From the IMG/VR virus record IMGVR_UViG_3300047564_003298, positions 1-44,019 of that record: a stretch of DNA of 44,019 nt, one strand, 5' to 3'. This DNA is from a virus. The position numbers were made by a program, and so were the translations under genes. The first letter of the stretch is position 1; each line of letters begins with the position of its first letter. Shown here piece by piece: positions 5,506-16,803 of the stretch. The notes beneath the pieces are model-generated. The model was not told the origin of the DNA. It worked only from the letters and a program-made list of their open reading frames with translations, and did not search any database.

Positions 5506-6312
5506 TCAATCTCCTGTATATTTCTCCAGTTTGAACTTCTTCTTGATCATATAATACTTACGATACCAGTTCCCTTCGTAGAATTTCTTAGGACTTTTAT
5601 GGGAATCTAATTGCTCGACCGTTCCTGGACCAAATGAGGCAGAAAAGTCATCAGTCGTCTTGAATGGAATCACCTGAAGGAGAGGGGTTCCTGCAGGGAT
5701 CGTGAGATCTATCCTTCTCTTTGGTGAGAAAATTACATTGGCAGTCGTAAACTCTCTATAATCCACAACCCCAGGATAAAGATATAAATCTTCAAGATAT
5801 GGACAATGATAAAAAGCAGGGAGCAATAACGCAGAAACGTTTTTCTTTCCGAAGATCTTCCATGGACCTGGCATATTGAATGCTGTTGGTTTGATATCAT
5901 CACCGAATGTAAACAGACCATTTGTTACATCTGTTGACATTGGAAATGGTTCTTTCAGTGGAAGTTCTGGTGGATTTATTTGAATTGGATTCTCAAATGG
6001 ATGAGGCTTTGGCTTTGCTGCCTTATCTGCTAAAGATGTACCATAACGAATTGCAGTGCCTGCTTTGTTTGCTTTGATATGAATGTCAACCCATGCAGTG
6101 ATCAAATAACCCATTCGTGAATAATCGTGCATTCCAGGACATCCTGGAAAGTTATAACTGCCCTGGTCTTTTTCCTGAAACTCTTTGAAGAACGGTTTTA
6201 CGTCTTTCGCAAGAAGAATTGGATAGTGAGTGTAAACCTGTCGACTTGAATCAACAAATTCTAAATCAGGAGTTTCTTTTGAAAAGAAATTGAATAATTT
6301 ATTCATCTTCAT
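5506..6312 (-). CDS. Uncharacterised phage protein, paralogue of its upstream neighbour
   Basis: 268 aa, function not recognised. It shares a layout with the protein encoded just upstream. Residues CPGMHDYSRMGYLITAW align with the neighbour's CLPMLDAMSLGFTIPLA, and both are followed by a D-x-H-x strand. Near the C-terminus both have an AGTPLLQVIPFK or AGTPLVTAIPVK segment. It ends in a basic, aromatic tail (EGNWYRKYYMIKKKFK). No signal peptide or membrane segment is visible. The ATG at 6312 overlaps the end of the previous gene by 14 bases; an ATG at 6306 is possible. The pattern recalls small phage/bacterial families of unknown function such as DUF6065, but I cannot confirm membership. Its position after the oxygenase gene suggests a late, fibre-related role (inference). 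Confidence 0.75.
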   Translation of the reverse strand: MKMNKLFNFFSKETPDLEFVDSSRQVYTHYPILLAKDVKPFFKEFQEKDQGSYNFPGCPGMHDYSRMGYLITAWVDIHIKANKAGTAIRYGTSLADKAAKPKPHPFENPIQINPPELPLKEPFPMSTDVTNGLFTFGDDIKPTAFNMPGPWKIFGKKNVSALLLPAFYHCPYLEDLYLYPGVVDYREFTTANVIFSPKRRIDLTIPAGTPLLQVIPFKTTDDFSASFGPGTVEQLDSHKSPKKFYEGNWYRKYYMIKKKFKLEKYTGD

Positions 6313-7045
6313 GTTTTCTCTTTCTCAATTCCCAAGTATAGTGATGAGTTCTTGTATGCTGAGCCTTTTGAATCTTTTCAATATGCTTCTTCTCACCCGA
6401 AGTCATTGAACGAACTTTTGGTTTACGATTATTGAATGAGCCACGTTTGACTGGAATTGCAGTCACCAAAGGAGTTCCTGCTGGCAGACTTCCGTCGAAA
6501 TCAGGCACAAGCCAAGCCGCAGGAAAGTTTACTTCTTTCGGATATGCATCAGTATCAACATATCCAGCAAGGCAGCGGAATGGCTGATCGAAATGATTCA
6601 TTGGTGGAATAAACAACGTTGACCAACCTGGTTTTGTTTTGATGACCCAACGATTGATGAACTTCACGGGATTACCGTGCTTGACGCCCATCGCTGCTTT
6701 ACCACCGACTTGACCAGCATCATGGAATTCAGCAACAACAATTCCAGGTGGATTTATAATTTCTATTTGAGTGCAGTTGTGATTCGTAGTTACATGAAGA
6801 TCACCAGCAAGAGGAATTGTAAATCCAAGAGACATAGCATCAAGCATCGGTAAACACTTCTTTGCTGTCATGGTTGGATTACCGAAAACGTCGCGCTTGC
6901 CTGCATCGAATGTTGGCGCAAGATCTTTGAACCATTTGGGAAGATACTTCACAGCAGGGCGAGGTTCTGGAATTACGCCATCGAAATCTGGATGGCAATA
7001 GAATTCCATTACATCATTGCCCCAGAACTTGAGCCAATTTTTCAT
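6299..7045 (-). CDS. Uncharacterised phage protein (possible DUF6065-like)
   Basis: 248 aa from the ATG at 7045, starting MKNWLKFWGND. Visible blocks are KKCLPMLDAMSLGF, then GDLHV, then KPGWSTLFIPPMNH, CLAGYVDTDAYP and PAGTPLVTAIPVKR. A C-terminal tail is rich in Lys, His and Arg. A GWS-LF-P-N, then VDTD, then GTPL-IPVK order is seen in DUF6065-type proteins; I offer that as a weak resemblance. I prefer the ATG at 7045 over an upstream GTG at 7063 because it lies one base after the oxygenase stop codon and has a GAGAGG site upstream. It is a tandem paralogue of the next gene. Its function is unknown. Confidence 0.8.
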   Translation of the reverse strand: MKNWLKFWGNDVMEFYCHPDFDGVIPEPRPAVKYLPKWFKDLAPTFDAGKRDVFGNPTMTAKKCLPMLDAMSLGFTIPLAGDLHVTTNHNCTQIEIINPPGIVVAEFHDAGQVGGKAAMGVKHGNPVKFINRWVIKTKPGWSTLFIPPMNHFDQPFRCLAGYVDTDAYPKEVNFPAAWLVPDFDGSLPAGTPLVTAIPVKRGSFNNRKPKVRSMTSGEKKHIEKIQKAQHTRTHHYTWELRKRKHEDE

Positions 7046-7046
7046 A

Positions 7047-7646
7047 TCAATTAGTCCTCTCACCCATGACCCAACATACTAATGATTTACGAACACCAGA
7101 AGTCACTGGAGCGACGCGATGTGGCATGAACGAAGAAAAGAAAATAACATCCCCACGTTTGGGCTTCATAACAATTGGATTATCAACTCGACCATGAGGC
7201 ACTAATTGAAATTCACCACCTTGATAGTCATCTGGATCGGTGAGCAGAACTGATGCGCTAATCTTGCGAATATAATTGGCACTAGTGGTATCCATATCCA
7301 TGTGCCAATCATAATGTTGTTTGTTCTTTGCTTTGTATACTGTGTATTGAAAATTATCAAAACCATCGATGTTATACATGAAATGGTCGTTATTTACTTG
7401 CGAAAGAAGAGCACCAAATTTTTGAAAGATCCAATCTGAGTTTTGATCATGCATGATCCACATGATATCACTGTCGCGAGCTTTTTTGTTTACTGCGCCA
7501 CCAGTGCCGCCGCCGACAGCACCTCTTTGAAACTTTTGCAAGTCTTCAAGATCAACAATCTTGTCACATTCTTCTTCAGTAAAAACGTTTGATGCTACGC
7601 AGTACTGTTGTAATGTCTTAGCGTATTTTTGCACTTTGAATGGCAT
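7047..7646 (-). CDS. 2-oxoglutarate/Fe(II)-dependent oxygenase, prolyl 4-hydroxylase type (copy 1, intact site)
   Basis: 199 aa. The double-stranded beta-helix iron site is complete: H115 and D117 in YDWHMDMD, H176 in FMPHRV, and R186 in SGVRKSL as the likely 2-oxoglutarate ligand. Between them is LLTDPDDYQGGEFQLV, typical of PKHD/P4H-type phage and bacterial enzymes. Such enzymes hydroxylate protein side chains (often proline) using O2 and 2-oxoglutarate. The start at 7646 is supported by GGAG five bases upstream. It follows an Asn/Tyr repeat protein gene directly, the same order seen for the paralogue at 11.7 kb. Its substrate is unknown; the neighbouring repeat proteins and the collagen-like fibre are the obvious candidates (inference). 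Class assignment is firm, substrate is not. Confidence 0.9.
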   Translation of the reverse strand: MPFKVQKYAKTLQQYCVASNVFTEEECDKIVDLEDLQKFQRGAVGGGTGGAVNKKARDSDIMWIMHDQNSDWIFQKFGALLSQVNNDHFMYNIDGFDNFQYTVYKAKNKQHYDWHMDMDTTSANYIRKISASVLLTDPDDYQGGEFQLVPHGRVDNPIVMKPKRGDVIFFSSFMPHRVAPVTSGVRKSLVCWVMGERTN

Positions 7647-7684
7647 AACAACTCCACATTTTGCAGAATAACCAAATTATACTA

Positions 7685-7692
7685 TATTTAGT
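7685..7692 (-). promoter_or_regulatory. Possible late promoter, ACTAAATA
   Basis: ACTAAATA matches 6 of 8 positions of the late consensus and overlaps the stop codon of the 820-aa repeat gene. It lies about 39 bases upstream of the oxygenase start. The paralogous oxygenase gene has a better box in the same position. Confidence 0.4.
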
Positions 7693-10150
7693 CGATCTTT
7701 ACAACTATTTGACCACCTGTTGGCACAACGACTGGATAGTTGGCTGAATCGGGATATACATTTGTGTCTATTGCAGTTGGTGGCACATATGGTGCTAATT
7801 GACCTGCGTTATATCCAGAAATTGTATTTGCTGGTCCTGTGTTATAATTAGCAGTTGCTCCATCGCCACCTGGGAAATATACACCAAGAACATTTGTTGG
7901 TGCGCCAGAAGTGCCAAGAACTGGGAAATTATATGACGCAACATTACCAACGTTATATGTTGCTGCAGTATTGCCTGTATATGATGCTGGATTTCTTGGA
8001 TTATATGTTGCAGGATTTCCTGCATTGTATGATGCTACGTTATTACCAGTGTATGTTGCTGGAACTGGAGGATTATAACTTGCTGGATTGCCAGCGTTAT
8101 AATTGGCAATGGTGTTGCCTGTATAAGTTGCAGGATTTCCTGGATTATATGTCGCAGGATTACCAGCGTTATAATTAGCAAGAGTGTTACCAGAATACGA
8201 AGCAATGCTTCCAGGATTATATGTTGCTGCGGTTCCTGCGTTATATCCTGCAACATTATTACCAGTATATGTGGCAGCGGAACCAACATTGTAATTTGCT
8301 GAACCTGGATTGTATGCTGCTACGTTTCGTGGATTGTACGTGGCTGGCGTTCCAGCATTGTAGTTTGCATTATTTCCAACATAACCAGAAATATTTGTTG
8401 GTGTGTAACTTGCTGGGCTACCTGTATTATAATTAGCATTATTTCCAGTGTACGCTGCGATATTATTGCCAGAATAAGAAGCAGGTGATCCAGTATTGTA
8501 ATTCGCCGAACCAGGATTATATGCAGCTACGTTTCTTGGATTGTAAGACGCAATATTACCTGTATTGTAGTTGGCACTGTTACCAGAATATCCAGCGATG
8601 TTTCGTGGGTTATATGATGCGATATTATTGCCAGAATAAGATGCTGCTGTGCCAGCATTGTAGTTCGCAGATCCAGCATTATAGGCTGCGATGTTTCGCG
8701 GATTGTATGATGCAATATTTCCTGCATTATAATTTGCTGAGCCTGGATTATAGCCAGCCACTGATGGAGAATTATACGTTGCAGCGTTTCCAGAGTTGTA
8801 GTTTGCGGAACCTGGATTGTATACACCTGTTGGATTTCCTGGTGATCCTGGGAAATTGGTGAAATCAACAGTTAGCGTGCCGCCTCCAAGATTTGGAGAA
8901 AACCCAGTAACACTAACTGGACCAGCCGTGGTGTTGAAAACACGATTTCCAGTATTGAATGATGTTCCAGTACCAAAATAAGGGAACACTTCATATCCAT
9001 TCGCATTGTTGTACATTTCCTCATATTCACCAATCATGAGGTATCCAGTATTACTAAAATACATACCAGCTGACCAATTTGATTCAGTTGGAGCATTCAA
9101 ATTTTGTGTATTGCCAGAATATCCAGCGATGTTTCGTGGATTGTATGATGCAATATTTCCAGGAGTGAAGTTTGCGTTATTACCAGAATAACCAGCGATG
9201 TTTCTTGGATTGTATGATGCAACAGTGCCTGGATTATAGTTGGCGCTATTGCCAGAATATCCTGCGATATTTCTTGGGTTATAGGATGCAATCGCTCCAG
9301 GATTATAACTGGCTGCAGTTCCTACGTTATAGTTTGCTGAGCCTGGATTATATGCTGCTACGTTTCTTGGATTATATGATGCGGCATTACCAGCATTATA
9401 GTTCGCACTGTTACCAGAGTATCCAGAAATATTAGTAGGTGTGTATGATGCTGGGCTTCCAGTATTATAGTTGGGAGAACCAGGATTATACGCTGCTAGA
9501 TTGTTACCAGTATATGATGCTGGGCTTCCAGTATTGTACGTCGCACTACCAGAGTTATATGCTGCTACGTTTCTTGGATTATATGTCGCAGGAGTTCCTG
9601 CGTTATAGTTGGCACTGTTGCCAGAGTAGCCAGCAATGTTCGTTGGATTGTAAGAAGCAATATTGCCCGTATTATATCCAGAAACGTTGCGTGGATTGTA
9701 AGATGCTATATTATTTCCGCTATACGAAGCCGCACTTCCTGCGTTGTAGTTCGCGTTGTTTCCAGTATATGATGCGGTGTTATTTCCACTATACGAGGCT
9801 GGATTGCCTGCATTATAGTTGGCGCTATTACCTGTATACGACGCTGGGACTGGAGGGTTGTAAGACGCAGGATTGCCAGCGTTATATGTCGCAGCGTTAT
9901 TTCCAGAATAGGAAGCCGTTGTCCCTGCGTTATACGTCGCTGGACTGCCTGAGTTGTAGGTTGATGCACTGTTCCCAGTGTATGTGGCAATGTTTCCTGG
10001 AGTCGCATTATTACCTGTGCCTGCGCGTCCAGAAACTGAAGCATTGAAACGACCATATGGAATCGTTATGCTGGATGTATTATTGAAAGTGGTTGTGTTT
10101 CGAAATGCCGAACCGATCCAGCTTTTCAACAGGTCTGTGTGTAAGGGCAT
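7688..10150 (-). CDS. Asn/Tyr-rich repeat fibre protein, single-chain form
   Basis: 820 aa, built almost entirely of about 8-residue units of the form x-x-A-(S/N/T)-Y-(N/S/T)-x-(G/N/R), for example NPASYNPG, NIAGYSGN and SANYNAG. The N-terminus (about residues 1-60) is globular-looking and contains PYGR then VSGRAGTGN, shared with the 758-aa repeat protein. A non-repeat insert lies at about residues 345-435 (TESNWSAGMYF onward). The C-terminus, with GVYFPGG and ending VPTGGQIVVKID, is shared with the 516-aa repeat protein. Charged residues are scarce apart from Arg in NPRN units. The composition and regular spacing suggest a fibrous or solenoid virion protein, probably host-facing (inference). 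I do not recognise the repeat family. Confidence 0.85.
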   Translation of the reverse strand: MPLHTDLLKSWIGSAFRNTTTFNNTSSITIPYGRFNASVSGRAGTGNNATPGNIATYTGNSASTYNSGSPATYNAGTTASYSGNNAATYNAGNPASYNPPVPASYTGNSANYNAGNPASYSGNNTASYTGNNANYNAGSAASYSGNNIASYNPRNVSGYNTGNIASYNPTNIAGYSGNSANYNAGTPATYNPRNVAAYNSGSATYNTGSPASYTGNNLAAYNPGSPNYNTGSPASYTPTNISGYSGNSANYNAGNAASYNPRNVAAYNPGSANYNVGTAASYNPGAIASYNPRNIAGYSGNSANYNPGTVASYNPRNIAGYSGNNANFTPGNIASYNPRNIAGYSGNTQNLNAPTESNWSAGMYFSNTGYLMIGEYEEMYNNANGYEVFPYFGTGTSFNTGNRVFNTTAGPVSVTGFSPNLGGGTLTVDFTNFPGSPGNPTGVYNPGSANYNSGNAATYNSPSVAGYNPGSANYNAGNIASYNPRNIAAYNAGSANYNAGTAASYSGNNIASYNPRNIAGYSGNSANYNTGNIASYNPRNVAAYNPGSANYNTGSPASYSGNNIAAYTGNNANYNTGSPASYTPTNISGYVGNNANYNAGTPATYNPRNVAAYNPGSANYNVGSAATYTGNNVAGYNAGTAATYNPGSIASYSGNTLANYNAGNPATYNPGNPATYTGNTIANYNAGNPASYNPPVPATYTGNNVASYNAGNPATYNPRNPASYTGNTAATYNVGNVASYNFPVLGTSGAPTNVLGVYFPGGDGATANYNTGPANTISGYNAGQLAPYVPPTAIDTNVYPDSANYPVVVPTGGQIVVKID
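7790..10030 (-). repeat. Degenerate 24-base tandem repeat (8-residue units)
   Basis: Long run of in-frame 21 to 24-base units encoding A-x-Y-N-x-G-N-type octads. It is interrupted by one non-repeat insert at about 8845-9115. Units differ at synonymous and Ser/Thr/Asn/Ala positions, so the repeat is old and under protein-level constraint rather than recently amplified. Confidence 0.85.
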
Positions 10151-10178
10151 CTATACCAAAATCCATTGCTAGTTTGGA

Positions 10179-10186
10179 TATTTAGT
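10179..10186 (-). promoter_or_regulatory. Possible late promoter, ACTAAATA
   Basis: ACTAAATA, a 6 of 8 match to the late box, lies 28 bases upstream of the 820-aa gene start in a 46-base gap after the glycosyltransferase. Spacing resembles that of the perfect box at 5473. Confidence 0.45.
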
Positions 10187-10196
10187 ATTTGCGGAA

Positions 10197-11159
10197 TCAA
10201 TCGTATCGGTCGGGGATTTCCCAGTCATTCACGACATCTGGAGGCAAAAGAATACTTCTCGAGATGGCTCTATTCTCAAGTTTTCGATTGATGTAGTCGA
10301 CGCCAGAGTATTTTCGATATTCTTCGAAGAAATCATCGCTGAAACTATCCAAGAAAATGCGAAATTCTTTCTTCGACTTTTCTTTATTTCTCTGCAACTG
10401 TTCATGCGAAACAACTTGGCTTACATCTTGTTTCGTGATATATCGATGCGTGTCGATTAGATGATAGCAATGAATCTGCGTAGGCGCGCAGAGTTTATAT
10501 CCTGCAGCGATAGACGCAAGAGTCATATACTGCTCCTCACCCTCAAAGAAGATGCGAGGATTCATTCCGACATTTCTTAGCCAATCGCTATGTGTGAAAA
10601 AGTTTCCAGCAAATAGGTGAATTGTTGGGTGTAAGAAATCTTTAGTCGCCTCTCGAAACTCGCCGTGAGCACCAAGAATATAGTTATCGTGGAAAGACCA
10701 ATATCCAGCCTTTACTGTAATGCTTCCATGACGATCAATAAATGGAGTACCGTCGTCTTGCATTCTGAATGAGCCACAATTCGCATCGATGATAATTCTA
10801 TCGGTTTGATGCTGCTGCATTCCAAGTTTGAAATCATTGATCAAATAACGATCCCAATTCTTATCAAACAGCATATGAGAGTCGACTTGATAATAGAACT
10901 CTTCATCGTCAAGTTGAATTGAATTCAGATGTCTTGCCCAACCGACTCCGTCTGAATATTTGGCATCAATTCTTTTATAGCGAACGTTTTTATTTTGAGC
11001 GAGATCTGGATACTTCGCTTCTAGACTATCTGGGTAGTCAGTCTGTTCAAATACGCCATACGTCACTTTTGTCAGTTGAGATTGCATCTCCATCATATTG
11101 CGTAAAGTTTGGTGGAGAAGTGGGTCTCTGTACGAGACAATACTGACAAAAATCTTCAT
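10197..11159 (-). CDS. GT60-like glycosyltransferase (Skp1 GlcNAc-transferase type)
   Basis: 320 aa from ATG 11159. The fold is GT-A-like. It begins MKIFVSIVSYRDPLLHQTL, a nucleotide-binding strand. The metal-site motif is YYQVDSHMLFDKNWD (D-S-H in place of DXD). A C-terminal acceptor/catalytic region reads NPRIFFEGEEQYMTLASIAAG and then HCYHL. This order (SI-SYRDP, DSHM-F--NWD, FF-GEE) is that of the GT60 family, whose characterised eukaryotic members add GlcNAc to hydroxyproline of Skp1. The preceding oxygenase stop overlaps this ATG (TAATG), and GAGAGG lies upstream, so the start is well supported and the two are probably translated together. No signal peptide; it would act in the cell. 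Donor and acceptor are unknown. Modification of hydroxylated fibre proteins is inference from context. Confidence 0.85.
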   Translation of the reverse strand: MKIFVSIVSYRDPLLHQTLRNMMEMQSQLTKVTYGVFEQTDYPDSLEAKYPDLAQNKNVRYKRIDAKYSDGVGWARHLNSIQLDDEEFYYQVDSHMLFDKNWDRYLINDFKLGMQQHQTDRIIIDANCGSFRMQDDGTPFIDRHGSITVKAGYWSFHDNYILGAHGEFREATKDFLHPTIHLFAGNFFTHSDWLRNVGMNPRIFFEGEEQYMTLASIAAGYKLCAPTQIHCYHLIDTHRYITKQDVSQVVSHEQLQRNKEKSKKEFRIFLDSFSDDFFEEYRKYSGVDYINRKLENRAISRSILLPPDVVNDWEIPDRYD

Positions 11160-11722
11160 TAGCAACCTCTCTTTCCCATCACCCATACGTTCAACGACTT
11201 GCGCGTTCCAGAAGTGACTGTTGTGATTCGTGATGGCATCCATGGAGCATGGAAAACTATGCTGCCCAAATTTGGTTTGATTGGCATCACTTCTCCAGGA
11301 TCACCCGTGCCCATGATCTCAATCTCACCGCCCAAATATTCTTCTGGGTCTGTGAGCATAATTGATGCCGAGATTTTACGTTCCCAATTTAGAAATGCAA
11401 AGTCGACATCGTAATGCCAACCACATTCTTGCCCTTTCTTATATTTGGTATATGCGAATGCATCAAACCCATCAATATCGTACATGAAGAAATCGATATT
11501 GATTCGACCAACCAACGCAGAAAACTTATCAAAGAGCCATTGAGTGTCTTGATTTGGCGGGAGAATCGCGATGTCTGCTTTATTCTTGCCGTTTATCTGG
11601 TCTTTAGAAAACATTAGTTTCTTTTCTAAAGAAGTCACAGCATCAACTTCTTCTTGTGTCAAGAAGTCCGATATGACAGCGAATTTGGATAGAACACGAT
11701 TATATTTGATAACTTGAGGCAT
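11159..11722 (-). CDS. 2-oxoglutarate/Fe(II) oxygenase-like protein (copy 2, distal His replaced)
   Basis: 187 aa, clear paralogue of the enzyme at 7047-7646: shared MYDIDGFD, LTDPEEYLGGE, VTSGTRKSL and WVMG blocks. H103 and D105 are present in GWHYDVDF and R174 in SGTRKSL. The residue aligned with the distal iron ligand is Ser164 (WMPSRI against FMPHRV), encoded by TCA at 11233-11231, two base changes from any His codon. His158 lies six residues earlier and could conceivably substitute. It may be inactive, altered in chemistry, or a substrate-binding partner. The start at ATG 11722 has GGAG six bases upstream and aligns with the paralogue; an upstream GTG at 11734 is less likely. It overlaps the glycosyltransferase start. 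Confidence 0.85.
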   Translation of the reverse strand: MPQVIKYNRVLSKFAVISDFLTQEEVDAVTSLEKKLMFSKDQINGKNKADIAILPPNQDTQWLFDKFSALVGRINIDFFMYDIDGFDAFAYTKYKKGQECGWHYDVDFAFLNWERKISASIMLTDPEEYLGGEIEIMGTGDPGEVMPIKPNLGSIVFHAPWMPSRITTVTSGTRKSLNVWVMGKRGC

Positions 11723-11758
11723 AACGAACTCCACTTTACATGATCAACTAGTATAACC

Positions 11759-11766
11759 TATTTATT
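11759..11766 (-). promoter_or_regulatory. Probable late promoter, AATAAATA
   Basis: AATAAATA matches 7 of 8 positions of the late consensus. It sits 36 bases upstream of the second oxygenase start and overlaps the stop codon of the 516-aa repeat gene. It would drive the oxygenase-glycosyltransferase pair. Confidence 0.6.
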
Positions 11767-13312
11767 CGATTCTTACAACTATTTGTCCACCTGCAGGAAC
11801 TTCAATTGGGTGATCGCGATAATCAATCTCTTGGTTCTCAAAGTAGTAGCTGACTTCTTGCTCATTGACGTATACACCTGGAGCACAAACGCCGCCACCT
11901 GGGAAGTAAACACCAAATGCATATCCAGGCTCTCCTGGAGTTCCAGGAATTGGGAAGTTGTAGGTGCTTGCGCTTCCAGGATTATATGATGCTACAAAGT
12001 TTCCAGAATAACTTGCTATGCTATTGCCTGTGTATGTTGCTGGATTTCCTGAGTTGTAGCCAGAAACAAAGTTGGATGTATATGATGCTGGGTTACCAAG
12101 ATTATATGATGGCGGTGGTGCTGGATTATATCCAGCGATATTGTTTCCAGTATACGTTGCAGGGCTACCTGTGTTATATCCTGCATTGTTACCAGTATAA
12201 CCAGCTAATGTATTTCCAGAGAATCCACCAACAAACGTTGGATTATAATTTCCTGGATTACCAGTATTATATGATGCAGGATTACCACCAGGAGCAAATC
12301 CTGCTGTATTGTTGCCTGTATAGTTACCAGCAGAACCTGAATTATAGTTTACGCTGTTACCAGAATAGTTGCCAGCTGTTGCAGGATTATAGTTCTCAGT
12401 GTTACCAATATAATTTGCTATTGAACCTGTGTTATAATTTGGACCACCAGATCCACCTGCTGGAGTACATTCATAATTGACTTCATAATATTGTAATCCA
12501 CCACTTGTACTATTGATAACACCATTGGTTGTTGCAATTGGTGATGGGCAACTTGCGCTCCATCCAGACTCATAGTTCACATTGTTTACAAAAACCGAAT
12601 ACTCTAAAGGCTCACCTGGAGCACTTACTCTTCTTTCAACTTCATAGAAAGTCGTAGCATTCCAATTTACTCCACCACCACCTGGATTATATCCTGAGAT
12701 GTTTGTTGGGTTATATCCTGAAATATTGGTTGGGTTGAATGTTGCCGCATTTGTTGGATTGAATGATGCCACATTTCCAGGAGTATAATTTGCGTTTCCT
12801 GGAGTAAATGCTGGTGGATTATAGCCTGTGATTGTTGGTGCATTGTACGTTGCAGGATTTCCACCTGACAATACTGGATTGTAAGTTGCTGTGTTATCAT
12901 TATAACCTGCAAGAGATCCTGCATTATAATCACCAGTCCAATTACCTGGTGTCGGCGGACCACCCTCTAATGCGGTATATGTTATGTAAATGTTTAGTCC
13001 AATAGCCGCATGTGGACCTGCTCCTGGATTACCATAAGCAGTAGTTGGGCTTGGCAGCGTTGGCGTTGTCAATAATTGAGGATAATATTGAAATCCAATT
13101 TGAACAGGATCTTCTTCAAAAACTTGAGCAAATCCATTATCATTGACAAAAAATGTTGCGCTCCAATAAACCAATCCACCACCTGACGGTGGATTGTATG
13201 TCATGAAATTGCCAGTATATGATGCTACACCTGTATTATAGCCTGAAAGGTTTCCACCAGTGCTTGGATTGTATGTTGCAGGATTTCCTGGTGAGTAGAT
13301 TTCAGTAGACAT
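11762..13312 (-). CDS. Asn/Tyr-rich repeat fibre protein, C-terminal-type partner
   Basis: 516 aa of the same octad repeats (PATYNPST, NISGYNPT, NPASYTSN) with two non-repeat inserts, at about residues 48-130 (starting VYWSATFFVND) and 225-295 (starting NWNATTFYEVE and ending YECTPAG). The C-terminus, with NFPIPGTPG and GVYFPGG and ending VPAGGQIVVRIE, matches that of the 820-aa protein. The N-terminus lacks the PYGR/VSGR head of the other two repeat proteins. Its ATG overlaps the stop of the 758-aa gene (TAATG), so the two are translationally coupled. Together, 758 plus 516 contain the head and tail that the 820-aa protein has in one chain. It is probably a virion fibre component; the repeat family is unrecognised. 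Confidence 0.85.
   Translation of the reverse strand: MSTEIYSPGNPATYNPSTGGNLSGYNTGVASYTGNFMTYNPPSGGGLVYWSATFFVNDNGFAQVFEEDPVQIGFQYYPQLLTTPTLPSPTTAYGNPGAGPHAAIGLNIYITYTALEGGPPTPGNWTGDYNAGSLAGYNDNTATYNPVLSGGNPATYNAPTITGYNPPAFTPGNANYTPGNVASFNPTNAATFNPTNISGYNPTNISGYNPGGGGVNWNATTFYEVERRVSAPGEPLEYSVFVNNVNYESGWSASCPSPIATTNGVINSTSGGLQYYEVNYECTPAGGSGGPNYNTGSIANYIGNTENYNPATAGNYSGNSVNYNSGSAGNYTGNNTAGFAPGGNPASYNTGNPGNYNPTFVGGFSGNTLAGYTGNNAGYNTGSPATYTGNNIAGYNPAPPPSYNLGNPASYTSNFVSGYNSGNPATYTGNSIASYSGNFVASYNPGSASTYNFPIPGTPGEPGYAFGVYFPGGGVCAPGVYVNEQEVSYYFENQEIDYRDHPIEVPAGGQIVVRIE
11965..13305 (-). repeat. Degenerate octad-coding tandem repeat
   Basis: In-frame 21 to 24-base units encoding A/G-x-Y-N/T-x-G-N octads, broken by inserts at about 12425-12665 and 12915-13185. 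Confidence 0.8.
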
Positions 13313-15588
13313 TAGTAAGTTAGAACCCCATTAGCATAGAAATTTGGGCTAGACTTATACTTATTATTGAATGTATAGACTGTATATGGATAGTTGATTG
13401 AGACAATTGCGTTGATGCGTATAGCATTACCATTCTTGTCTACAAAACTATCTCCAACTTGAACTTGTGCAACTTCCTCCAAAGATCTATATCCTTGCAT
13501 TGTCAAATTTGGATTCATAGAAGCATAACCCTTTCCGATAACGAAGAATGGGTGATCATCAGATGCTCTGATTGCAACGCTATTTTCCAAGATGTACTCA
13601 AACATGACTCTGTTCACACGAGTAATAATTTCTGAAACTTCATTCGTCTCGTGCTGACCTGTTTCTGGATTGTAAGATAGAATTTCATCTCCAACCTGAA
13701 TAGTCTCAATGGTCTTGGTTGAGCCGTCAGCCATTGCAATGAGCGTGTCACCAGCGAAGCAACATCCACCACCGCCACCACCACTTGGTGCTGGAGCGTT
13801 ATAACCAGAAATTGTTGGTTCATTATATGTTGCTGCAAATCCTTCATTATAAGTTGCCACATTACCTGCATTATAAACAGCATTTCCAGCATTATATGTT
13901 TCAGTGCTTCCGCTGTTATATCCAGCAATGTTGTTTCCGCTATAAGTTCCTGCTACACCACTGTTATAGTTTGCAATATTACCTGGAACATAATTTGCGA
14001 TAGATCCAGCGTTATAGCTCCCTGTTGCAAAGTTTCCAGTGTAGTTTGCGATGTTTCCTGTGTTGTAAAGCTGCGCGCCAGCCGCATTGAATGTTGCTGT
14101 GAAGTTTCCAGTATAGTTTGCTGGATTACCTGTATTGTAATCTGCACTTCCTATATTATACACAGCATTACCCACATTGAAGCCACCAATAGTAGTTGGC
14201 GTGAATGATGCTGGATTGCCTGTATTGTAATTCGGTGTTGATGCGCCTGGAGGATTATAACCATTGATTGTTGCAAACGAACAATCAGTAAATGGATTTC
14301 CTGGAGTGAAGACTGCTGAGTTGCCAACAAAGCTGTTTATATTACCAGCGTTGTAAACTGCATTTCCTTGATTATAATTTGCATTATTATCAGTATAAGT
14401 GATTGCATTACCAGCAGTGAATCCTGAAGGATTACCTGTATTATAGTTTGCATTATTACCAGTATATCCACCGATAAAATTGCCGCTATAAGTTGATGGT
14501 GTTCCGACGTTGTAAGCACTTGCTGATCCTGGATTATATCCAGAAATATTTGTTGTATTATATGATGCTGGGTTTCCAGGATTATAAACTAGTGTTCCTG
14601 GATTATAATTGGCAGTTCCAGGCGTTGCTGGAGAACACTCATAGTATATATTATAGAAGTAAACCATTTGCCCACCACCAACAACAAACCCAGGAAAGTT
14701 TGGGAAGTTGCTTGGCGTGACTGCTTCTGCTGTAAATTCAGTTGGGCAACCAACTGATGTTCCTGTTCCTTCAAATGCTATTTGTTGATAATAATAGTAA
14801 CCTTCATCGAAGAAAGTTTCAACGATAACACCATACCAATTTACTGTTGATGGATTGTAGTTTGCAATTCCACCTGGATTATATACTGGCGACATTCCAC
14901 CAAATATATTAGTTGGAACTGTTACAACATTTCCTGCATTATAGGTTGCAGGATTACCAGTATTATAGTTTGCGCTATTCCCAGAATAGGCAGTGATATT
15001 GTTCGAACCACCAACATATGTTGCTGGATTGCCTGTGGTATATGTTGCACTACCAGCATTGTATCCGCTAATGTTTCTTGTATTATAACCGCCAGGAGTT
15101 GCAGCGTTATAACTTGTACCAACACCAGTATTATAACCAGCAATGTTTGTTGCGTTATAACCTGTAATGTTGCCAGCATTATATTGAGCGCCGCCTGTGC
15201 TTCCTGAGTTATACCCCACAATGACTGCAGGATTGAAGCCAGTGCCACAAGGATTATAGATTGCGTTATTACCACCGCTGGCTGGAATTTCAGTATTTCC
15301 AGTATACGATGCTGGGTTGCCAAAATTGTAATTGGCGTTGTTACCAGTATAGGAAGCAGTAAAACCTGGATTGTATGTTGCAGCAACACCAGAGTTATAT
15401 GATGCTGCGCTGTTGCCTGTATAAGTTGCAATATTACCAGGAACTAGACAGTTACCAGATCCACCGCGACCTGAAACGTAAAGACGATTTCTTCCATATG
15501 GAACAAACATATTTCCATATGTGTTGAACACAGTCGACCCACGAGTTGCCGTCCATGTTTTTTCTAATTCATCAATACGTTTTGGCAT
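13312..15588 (-). CDS. Asn/Tyr-rich repeat fibre protein with C-terminal Hint autoprocessing domain
   Basis: 758 aa. The head (about 1-60) has VPYGR and VSGRGGSGN as in the 820-aa protein. Octad repeats run to about residue 600, with a non-repeat insert at about 250-340 (NWYGVIVETFF to YYECSPATPG). After a six-Gly linker comes a Hint domain, residues 609-758. It has CCFAGDTLIAMADG with Cys609/610 as candidate nucleophile, QVGDEILSYN, then S676-D-D-H679 in RASDDHPFFV as the TxxH-like block, then VYTFNN and NFYANGVLTY at the end. Hint domains break the peptide bond before the Cys by an N-to-S acyl shift. The usual C-terminal His-Asn is absent, so N-terminal cleavage or transfer, not splicing, is expected. 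Its stop overlaps the next repeat gene's start. Confidence 0.85.
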   Translation of the reverse strand: MPKRIDELEKTWTATRGSTVFNTYGNMFVPYGRNRLYVSGRGGSGNCLVPGNIATYTGNSAASYNSGVAATYNPGFTASYTGNNANYNFGNPASYTGNTEIPASGGNNAIYNPCGTGFNPAVIVGYNSGSTGGAQYNAGNITGYNATNIAGYNTGVGTSYNAATPGGYNTRNISGYNAGSATYTTGNPATYVGGSNNITAYSGNSANYNTGNPATYNAGNVVTVPTNIFGGMSPVYNPGGIANYNPSTVNWYGVIVETFFDEGYYYYQQIAFEGTGTSVGCPTEFTAEAVTPSNFPNFPGFVVGGGQMVYFYNIYYECSPATPGTANYNPGTLVYNPGNPASYNTTNISGYNPGSASAYNVGTPSTYSGNFIGGYTGNNANYNTGNPSGFTAGNAITYTDNNANYNQGNAVYNAGNINSFVGNSAVFTPGNPFTDCSFATINGYNPPGASTPNYNTGNPASFTPTTIGGFNVGNAVYNIGSADYNTGNPANYTGNFTATFNAAGAQLYNTGNIANYTGNFATGSYNAGSIANYVPGNIANYNSGVAGTYSGNNIAGYNSGSTETYNAGNAVYNAGNVATYNEGFAATYNEPTISGYNAPAPSGGGGGGCCFAGDTLIAMADGSTKTIETIQVGDEILSYNPETGQHETNEVSEIITRVNRVMFEYILENSVAIRASDDHPFFVIGKGYASMNPNLTMQGYRSLEEVAQVQVGDSFVDKNGNAIRINAIVSINYPYTVYTFNNKYKSSPNFYANGVLTY
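13785..15450 (-). repeat. Degenerate octad-coding tandem repeat
   Basis: In-frame units encoding A-x-Y-N/T-x-G-N octads, with a higher share of Val and Ile (VYNAGNIN types) than the other two proteins. Broken by an insert at about 14610-14850. Confidence 0.8.
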
Positions 15589-15594
15589 TGTATC

Positions 15595-16803
15595 TTATCT
15601 GAAGTCTTTTACTGCCAATGTACCAACATACGTTGAGCCACCGTCATACGATGTAAATGTCCAAAGATCTTTACTACTTGATCCTGTAGTTTTTGGAGGA
15701 ATTGCGCCACCAGACCAATAAACAGTATTGGCAAAAGTATAGGTTCTTCCGCCAGTTCCATCTTGGATGATAATAAGCGAGAACGTCACTGCAAGACCAT
15801 TAGATGGTGCATTGGTAAACGTAAACGTCGTTGGTCCATTGAGAGTATACTTGAACCAATTTGATGAACTCAAGTCTACGCTCACTGCACCTGATACTGT
15901 GCTTGAAGAGATAAAGTCTTTAGTTGCCTTGAAGTTTGCAGTGACGTTACCCATGACAACGTTGGCTGGAAGATTATTGTATTCAATTTTCCAAGCACCA
16001 TCTGATTCATGCCAGTGGAGATCAGCATTTGCTGTTCCAATACTTTGACCGCGACGAACACGGAAGTATCCATCACCACCTGAAGAAGAAGTGAATCGAA
16101 GAACATATTTGTCGCTATCGGTCACTGCTGGGGCAAGAATAGGGTCTTCAACAGTCAACGTGCGAATATACGCATTGATGATATTTGCATTAGCAATGTT
16201 CGCAAGATTACGAACAAGTAGATTACCTGTTGCTGTATTACTTGCAACGTTTAGATTATATGCAAATACGTTATTTGTTACGTTCAACGTTCCAGTAACA
16301 TTCACATTTGCAAAGATAAACGTATTTGGGTGAATGTTTAGCGTTGCGGACTGTTCTGTATTTGCAATGTTTACAATACCAGCATTGATTGACACTTTCA
16401 CAACGTTGACGTTTATGATACCATGCGAAACGTTTGAGAAGGTGATGTTAGATCCATAGAATGCAGTGTTTGTATTTACTGTGAATAGATCTGTTTCGCC
16501 CATTCTTCTAAATTCAATGTCGCCAGCGTCGACATAAACATGATTTGTAGAATTGTCTACTTCTATGTTATGGACAGTAAGTGTTCCATCGATATTCGTA
16601 TCGTCTTTGACGTCAAGAATAACACCGCCAGCAGAGTTAGCGATGCGAACGTAACCCTCTGAGATGACAACGTTGCCAAAAGGCTTGACGAAGTCGCCGC
16701 GACAAATTTCGTTCACGTCGTTTGCCATGAGGTTGTCGTTGATACGCCACTGATTGAACGTATTTGACACCGTTGTTAGGTAAACATTTATTGTATTTGC
16801 CAT
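15595..16803 (-). CDS. Tail fibre / virion structural protein
   Basis: 402 aa. The N-terminus (MANTINVYLTTVSNTFNQWR) reads like a phage fibre head. The middle is a long beta-rich stretch of Val/Asn/Thr repeats (about 65-215), typical of a beta-helix shaft. Residues about 225-285 hold RFTSSSGGDGYFRVRRG and ADLHWHESDGAWKIEYNN. The C-terminal 110 residues (VDLSSSNWFKYTLNGPTTF and IIIQDGTGGRTYTF, then TFTSYDGG) match a domain common at the tips of phage fibres. The gene starts one base after the coiled-coil gene. Adhesion or baseplate-attached fibre function is inferred from architecture. Exact T4 counterpart not assigned. Confidence 0.75.
   Translation of the reverse strand: MANTINVYLTTVSNTFNQWRINDNLMANDVNEICRGDFVKPFGNVVISEGYVRIANSAGGVILDVKDDTNIDGTLTVHNIEVDNSTNHVYVDAGDIEFRRMGETDLFTVNTNTAFYGSNITFSNVSHGIINVNVVKVSINAGIVNIANTEQSATLNIHPNTFIFANVNVTGTLNVTNNVFAYNLNVASNTATGNLLVRNLANIANANIINAYIRTLTVEDPILAPAVTDSDKYVLRFTSSSGGDGYFRVRRGQSIGTANADLHWHESDGAWKIEYNNLPANVVMGNVTANFKATKDFISSSTVSGAVSVDLSSSNWFKYTLNGPTTFTFTNAPSNGLAVTFSLIIIQDGTGGRTYTFANTVYWSGGAIPPKTTGSSSKDLWTFTSYDGGSTYVGTLAVKDFR

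What the first reader, a model, noticed from the sequence alone, without database searches (positions are those of the whole stretch)
11762..15588. One fibre architecture split into two coupled genes at the Hint domain
The 820-aa protein has both the PYGR/VSGR head and the GVYFPGG...GGQIVV tail. The 758-aa protein has only the head and ends in Hint. The 516-aa protein has only the tail and starts at an overlapping TAATG. The break falls exactly at the Hint domain. Either an element insertion split an ancestral gene, or the Hint thioester rejoins or links the two chains.
Basis: partly seen in the sequence, partly recalled or inferred. Interest (0 to 1): 0.75.

Follow-up and report, generated by a model that had tools for sequence, protein, structure and literature searches.

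The report
Phage fibre gene split at Hint cap
In one small group of uncultured phages, a gene for a long spike-like tail fibre has been broken into two neighbouring genes, and the first piece now ends in a self-cutting protein module of the kind found in inteins; relatives still carry the unbroken gene, and some carry the break with a different end module, so the module probably caps the first piece rather than gluing the two back together.

Summary
The 758-aa protein has the fibre head and ends in an intact-looking Hint domain (residues 609-758). The 516-aa protein has only the tail and starts at an overlapping TAATG. The 820-aa paralogue has both ends.

Relatives settle the direction. All 50 distinct complete head+tail proteins found are unsplit and none has a Hint. 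The sister clade has two unsplit copies at the same site. The split occurs in one well-supported clade (100/100), in the first copy only.

The Hint is not what defines the break. Five contigs (window included) have the Hint. One (L004) has the break, doubled, with Pro/Gly-rich 'EFESEV' ends. One (L014) has a different, Hint-like but unproven cap. Caps look exchangeable at a poly-Gly linker.

The Hint keeps the thioester-forming residues and is under strong purifying selection (dN/dS 0.04), but lacks the C-terminal His-Asn. The partner chain has no conserved N-terminal nucleophile. Rejoining the chains is therefore possible but not favoured. Best reading: a fibre divided into proximal and distal chains, whose proximal chain carries a self-cleaving or conjugating BIL-type cap. 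No activity was tested. New variant of a known kind; interest 0.5.

The parts
13312..15588 (-). 758-aa proximal fibre chain: head, YN-rich repeats, one inserted globular module, poly-Gly linker, C-terminal Hint
15364..15588 (-). Head domain (residues 1-75), shared with the 820-aa paralogue and all unsplit relatives
   Evidence: profile hits E 3e-43 here and 2e-41 in 820 aa; head alignment and tree
13765..13782 (-). Poly-Gly linker (GGGGGG) before the cap; the apparent exchange point for caps
   Evidence: a similar ...GYNAP..GGGG junction precedes different caps in L003, L017 and L014, and Pro/Gly-rich linkers precede EFESEV in L004
13315..13764 (-). Hint domain with preceding Cys (residues 609-758). 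Predicted nucleophile Cys610 (second of CC); block B Ser-Asp-Asp-His 676-679; ends GVLTY, no His-Asn
13310..13314 (-). TAATG overlap of the 758 stop and 516 start; likely translational coupling
   Evidence: same overlap in L001, L002, L003, L017
11762..13312 (-). 516-aa distal fibre chain: no head, YN repeats, two inserted modules, tail; contains no lysine
11765..11989 (-). Tail domain (last 75 residues) with a Cys (VCAPG) found only in the split clade
7688..10150 (-). 820-aa unsplit paralogue (second copy, 'B'), head to tail
   Evidence: its head groups with the B copies of the sister clade
15595..16803 (-). 402-aa tail fibre protein directly upstream; marks the same genomic site in relatives with an unsplit copy
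   Evidence: (PHROG tail fibre)

Best explanation
The first ('A') copy of a duplicated head-to-tail fibre gene was divided in the ancestor of this clade into translationally coupled chains: a proximal chain that keeps the presumed virion-attachment head (758 aa) and a distal chain that keeps the tip (516 aa). This works like the division of the T4 long tail fibre into separate half-fibre chains. The proximal chain received an exchangeable C-terminal cap after a poly-Gly linker. In the window the cap is a BIL-type Hint domain that should form a thioester at Cys610 but cannot cyclise Asn. The most likely outcome is N-terminal self-cleavage (by water or a small nucleophile), releasing the 17-kDa cap and leaving a proximal chain ending ...GGGGGGC. 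The two chains then meet non-covalently, or through disulphides, end to end. Shown: the split, its derived state, the predicted Hint fold and its conserved catalytic residues, the selection on it, and its absence in a sister lineage with the same break. Inferred: assembly of the two chains into one fibre, thioester formation, cleavage.
For: 50 of 50 distinct complete head+tail proteins are unsplit and lack a Hint, while heads without tails and tails without heads sit together in one clade (one further head-only protein, L112, is a short, distant case outside this clade whose tail is not detected). The split clade is monophyletic 100/100 and sister to phages with two unsplit copies after the same 402-aa gene. 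The 820-aa head groups with the second copies. The break is homologous with and without Hint: the distal or middle ORFs start MST[EA][IF]Y.PGN in window, L002 and L004. Hint fold: 6y75 Z 23.2, 2lwy Z 20.3. Cys, the block-A Thr, DDHP and C-terminal strand residues are invariant across eight phage Hints. dN/dS window-L002 is 0.04 in the Hint against 0.075 in the 402-aa gene, 0.105 in the repeats and 0.20 in the distal chain. The domain stops two residues after GVL in all five Hint contigs. By the literature, B-type BIL domains lack the C-terminal motif and can cleave at their N-terminus (PMC7765530).
Against: No biochemical evidence that the Hint is active or that the two chains share a fibre. 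The split pair is about twice as long as an unsplit A copy (about 1120 aa without Hint against 500-778), so two tandem copies that each lost one end is an equally simple history. Whether the Hint preceded or followed the split is unresolved, since L004 may be basal (support 74/96). The Hints of the window and L003 groups are far more diverged (about 50% identity, dS mostly saturated) than neighbouring genes, so they may be separate acquisitions.
Confidence: 0.5

Rival explanations
1. Hint-driven chain joining: the thioester at Cys610 is attacked by the N-terminal amine of the 516-aa chain, giving a peptide bond and a rejoined head-to-tail fibre.
For: The chains are coupled (TAATG), adjacent, and complementary in head and tail. 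The window and L002 tails have no lysine, so the N-terminus is the only amine. A BIL domain can ligate without nucleophilic side chains (Aranko 2013, title cited in PMC7664689).
Against: No C-terminal His-Asn, no C-intein part on the tail, and no conserved N-terminal nucleophile (Ser in some, Ala in L003/L017). L004 has the same break and no Hint. Lysine is rare in all these fibres, so its absence from the tail says little.
Confidence: 0.12
2. Hedgehog-like conjugation: the thioester hands the proximal fibre's C-terminus to another nucleophile (a lipid, sugar, polyamine or another virion protein).
For: As in Hog domains, only the N-S acyl shift machinery is kept. Unrelated phage structural proteins also end in Gly-rich plus CC-Hint without (L083) or with (L084) a terminal HN; L084 is a GP38-like adhesin.
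Against: There is nothing C-terminal of the Hint that could bind a substrate, unlike the sterol-recognition region of Hog. No substrate is known. The fold is closer to BIL (Z 23) than to Hog (Z 17).
Confidence: 0.15
3. The Hint is a stable, uncleaved structural cap or docking domain, like the other caps at the same place (Pro/Gly-EFESEV in L004, the unassigned cap in L014).
For: Caps look interchangeable at one site. The L014 cap lacks Cys and the block-B His if it is a Hint at all.
Against: Catalytic residues are invariant in all five Hint contigs and in unrelated phage Hints, under strong purifying selection.
Confidence: 0.15
4. Two different fibres: 758 and 516 no longer belong to one fibre but are separate adhesins, derived from two tandem copies that lost opposite ends.
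For: The combined length is about twice an unsplit A copy and there are three inserted modules, against one in the 820-aa paralogue. L004 and L014 have three pieces rather than two.
Against: The distal piece has no head in any of seven contigs, so it probably needs a partner. The head and tail pieces are always adjacent and in order where both are complete.
Confidence: 0.2

Closest known systems
Bacterial intein-like (BIL) domains, B-type; solved BIL structures 6y75 (BIL2 of Tetrahymena BUBL1) and 2lwy (Clostridium thermocellum)
   Same: Fold (Z 23.2 and 20.3, 25-28% identity), thioester-side motifs, non-conserved host protein, C-terminal motif missing as in B-type
   Different: Sits at the very C-terminus of a phage fibre chain, followed by a separate gene; activity untested; the 6y75 construct carries a terminal Asn (title C1A-N143A), which is absent here
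PT-HINT (pretoxin Hint) of Rhs/polymorphic proteins
   Same: CCFVAGT start and DDHPFF block; these repeat-rich Rhs-type proteins are the nearest non-intein cellular matches (L174-L176; ORFs read)
   Different: PT-HINT is followed by VHN and a C-terminal domain; here nothing follows
Hedgehog Hog/Hint
   Same: Thioester half only, no terminal Asn; fold Z 16.9 (1at0)
   Different: No sterol-recognition region; lower structural similarity than BIL
T4 long tail fibre (gp34 to gp37, from general knowledge)
   Same: One long fibre built from separate proximal and distal chains with the attachment domain on the first and the tip on the last
   Different: T4 uses no Hint; homology was not tested; here an unsplit paralogue and unsplit relatives exist

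Membership tests
Intein (cis-splicing) | N-terminal Cys/Ser nucleophile and block B T/S-x-x-H | tested here: met
   Cys610 and SDDH 676-679; conserved in relatives; NCBIfam intein N-terminal region above cut-off
Intein (cis-splicing) | C-terminal His-Asn and a C-extein with +1 nucleophile in the same chain | tested here: not met
   Ends GVLTY or GVLVG then stop; no C-extein
Split intein | Complementary N- and C-intein parts on two chains | tested here: not met
   The whole Hint fold lies on 758; 516 starts with fibre repeats
B-type BIL domain | Hint fold with intein motifs except the C-terminal one | tested here: met
   definition from PMC7765530
B-type BIL domain | N-terminal autocleavage | not testable with these tools
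   Needs protein expression
Hedgehog Hog domain | Hint followed by a sterol-recognition region | tested here: not met
   The protein ends with the Hint
PT-HINT | Hint between a repeat protein and a C-terminal domain that it releases | tested here: not met
   The CCF start resembles it and Pfam PT-HINT matches at E 2e-4, below cut-off; no C-terminal domain
Multi-chain tail fibre (T4 long tail fibre type) | Separate chains forming one fibre in the virion | not testable with these tools
   Only gene order and complementary ends are known

The most novel reading that the evidence does not exclude
The Hint of the proximal chain covalently ligates it in trans to the N-terminus of the distal chain, rebuilding a gene-split phage fibre at the protein level without Asn cyclisation.
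Probability: 0.1. Interest if true: 0.85.

Novelty: new variant of a known kind. Interest (0 to 1): 0.5.

Why it matters
It gives a natural before/after series for one adhesin: unsplit relatives, a split with a Hint, a split with another cap, and an unsplit paralogue in the same genome. That makes it possible to test what a self-processing Hint does on a virion fibre, a place where no function was described in the papers searched here. If the Hint cleaves, it is a new way to mature a fibre's C-terminus; if it conjugates or ligates, it is a new chemistry on phage particles.

Tried and rejected
Chain fusion by frameshift or readthrough: the distal frame is open for only about six codons upstream of its ATG in the window (522 against 516 codons), the L003 distal frame appears to have a TAG just upstream (sequence), and no slippery site is visible by eye; rejected as unlikely. 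Split intein: rejected (whole Hint on one chain). Mobile element insertion with a homing endonuclease: the Hint is 150 aa with no endonuclease, GC 0.39 like its neighbours; not supported. L014 cap as a degenerate Hint: G-D motif, TP at block B and terminal THN look similar, but hhalign gave probability 7.9, the AlphaFold model is poor (pLDDT 46), and the only PDB sequence hit for its relative in L165, to a DnaB intein, has E 0.17; left open. Isolated phages: no match to either fibre protein in 50,697 phage records, although low-complexity filtering may hide the repeats. A chemically special meaning for the lysine-free tail: rejected, lysine is rare in all these fibres. The AXH (Ataxin-1) Pfam hit scores above its cut-off, but fold search ranks BIL/inteins first and no AXH entry is in the rows shown, so it was treated as a cross-match.

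Full report
What is there. The window is a 44-kb virus record from a T4-like contractile-tailed phage: upstream genes match T4 gp8 and a phage baseplate wedge family, and the 1063-aa gene matches genes of cyanophages, Rhizobium phages and others. On the minus strand the order is 1063 aa, 402-aa tail fibre, 758 aa, 516 aa, 2OG oxygenase, PF11397 glycosyltransferase, 820 aa, 2OG oxygenase, DUF6065 protein, 268 aa. The 758, 516 and 820-aa proteins are made of tyrosine-asparagine-rich repeats (GNIASYNPGN...). 758 and 820 share an N-terminal head; 516 and 820 share a C-terminal tail. The 758 stop and 516 start overlap as TAATG.

The Hint. Residues 609-758 match Hint/intein families. The AlphaFold model (pLDDT 86.9) is closest to BIL2 of the Tetrahymena BUBL1 locus (6y75, Z 23.2, 1.6 A over 140 residues), then the Clostridium BIL (2lwy, Z 20.3), then inteins and the Hedgehog domain (Z 16.9). 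Across eight phage Hints the Cys (second of Cys-Cys in six of them), the block-A Thr, the DDHP of block B and residues of the last strand are invariant. The domain ends GVLTY or GVLVG, just where His-Asn would stand, as described for B-type BIL domains, which can cleave at the N-terminus (PMC7765530). Between the window and L002 the Hint has dN/dS 0.04, lower than the 402-aa gene (0.075), the repeats (0.105) and the distal chain (0.20). So it is maintained, and the residues for thioester formation are kept; activity itself is inferred.

The split is derived. Searches of IMG/VR with the 758-aa protein, the glycosyltransferase, the 402-aa protein, the DUF6065 protein, the Hint and the tail gave many loci. 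Among them, 50 distinct complete proteins have head and tail together, none with a Hint; this count includes the unsplit second copies of the split clade. A tree of four neighbouring proteins places all split loci that could be included in one clade (100/100), sister to a clade whose members mostly have two unsplit head+tail genes right after the 402-aa gene. The 820-aa head falls with the second copies of those phages (branch supports 87-89), so the duplication is older than the split and only the first copy was split. The tail of the split type was found in six contigs besides the window, all in headless ORFs.

The break does not depend on the Hint. Five contigs (window, L001, L002, L003, L017) have head-Hint / TAATG / tail. 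L004 has three ORFs: head ending in Pro-rich and Gly-rich sequence and EFESEVV, a middle piece ending the same way (EFESEVT), and the tail piece. L014 has three pieces whose first two end in or carry a different cap that resembles a Hint in outline but could not be shown to be one; a close relative of that cap ends a protein of a 342-kb virus contig after a poly-Gly run (L165). The start of the second ORF in L004 is homologous to that of the window's distal ORF (MST..Y.PGN). The two Hint groups (window and L003) differ far more from each other (about 50% identity, synonymous sites mostly saturated) than their neighbouring genes do. Caps therefore seem to be exchanged at the poly-Gly linker. 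Branching inside the clade is not well resolved, so whether the first cap was a Hint is open.

Mechanism. The most likely reading is a fibre divided between chains, with the attachment head on the proximal and the tip on the distal chain. The Hint would act as a removable or conjugating cap of the proximal chain: N-S acyl shift at Cys610, then hydrolysis or attack by a small nucleophile, leaving ...GGGGGGC. Rejoining with the 516-aa chain would need attack by its N-terminal amine. The missing His-Asn, the lack of a conserved N-terminal nucleophile (Ser in some, Ala in L003/L017) and the Hint-free L004 speak against it, but do not exclude it. The split clade also has its own conserved cysteines in head (47, 114, 436) and tail (476) that unsplit relatives lack at those places; they could form disulphides and are present in L004 as well.

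Comparison and novelty. It works like a B-type BIL or a Hog domain without its sterol region, and its sequence start resembles the PT-HINT of Rhs-type proteins, but it fails defining features of inteins, split inteins, Hog and PT-HINT. Two of the three phage papers read on Hint domains describe an intein or Hint in terminase or another enzyme, and the third reports none in its own phage and mentions terminase inteins in relatives; no description of a Hint on a tail fibre was found in the searches made, which cover open-access papers only. I rate it a new variant of a known kind, interest 0.5.

Noticed in passing
window 5506-11734: Fibre gene, prolyl-4-hydroxylase/PKHD-like 2OG oxygenase, DUF6065 protein, 268-aa protein and a PF11397 glycosyltransferase (a GlcNAc transferase family that, from general knowledge, includes the enzyme modifying hydroxyproline on Dictyostelium Skp1) form a cassette. 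39 of 50 unsplit fibre genes have the oxygenase within 300 nt downstream. This suggests phage-encoded hydroxylation and glycosylation of the NP-rich fibre repeats; no paper on it was found.
   Followed up: partly
window 6299-7063: The DUF6065 protein has relatives (about 35% identity) in haloarchaeal tailed viruses such as HF1, there too near tail genes.
   Followed up: partly
L083 7644-8465; L084 7011-8459; L165 4624-6405: Unrelated phage proteins also end in a Gly-rich run followed by a Hint (CC start in L083 and L084; L084 is a GP38-like adhesin) or by the unassigned Hint-like cap (L165).
   Followed up: partly
window 13315-13764: The Hint matches the Ataxin-1 AXH family in Pfam above its cut-off (E 6e-11) and Ataxin-1 chains in the PDB by sequence (E about 1e-5); a possible evolutionary link or a contaminated profile.
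   Followed up: no
L003 and L017: Their 402-aa genes are nearly identical (dS 0.03) but the adjacent split fibre differs strongly (dS 0.4-0.85), a sign of recent fibre exchange.
   Followed up: partly
L079 26-4138 (also L080-L082): A protein with two apparent Hint domains (the first with Ser in place of Cys) is followed by a row of genes that look like four 2OG oxygenases (three recognised by profile).
   Followed up: no
L004 8001-11635: Two successive fibre pieces end in the same acidic motif EFESEV after poly-Pro/poly-Gly, and the distal piece starts with a basic segment plus Gly linker; possibly docking ends.
   Followed up: no
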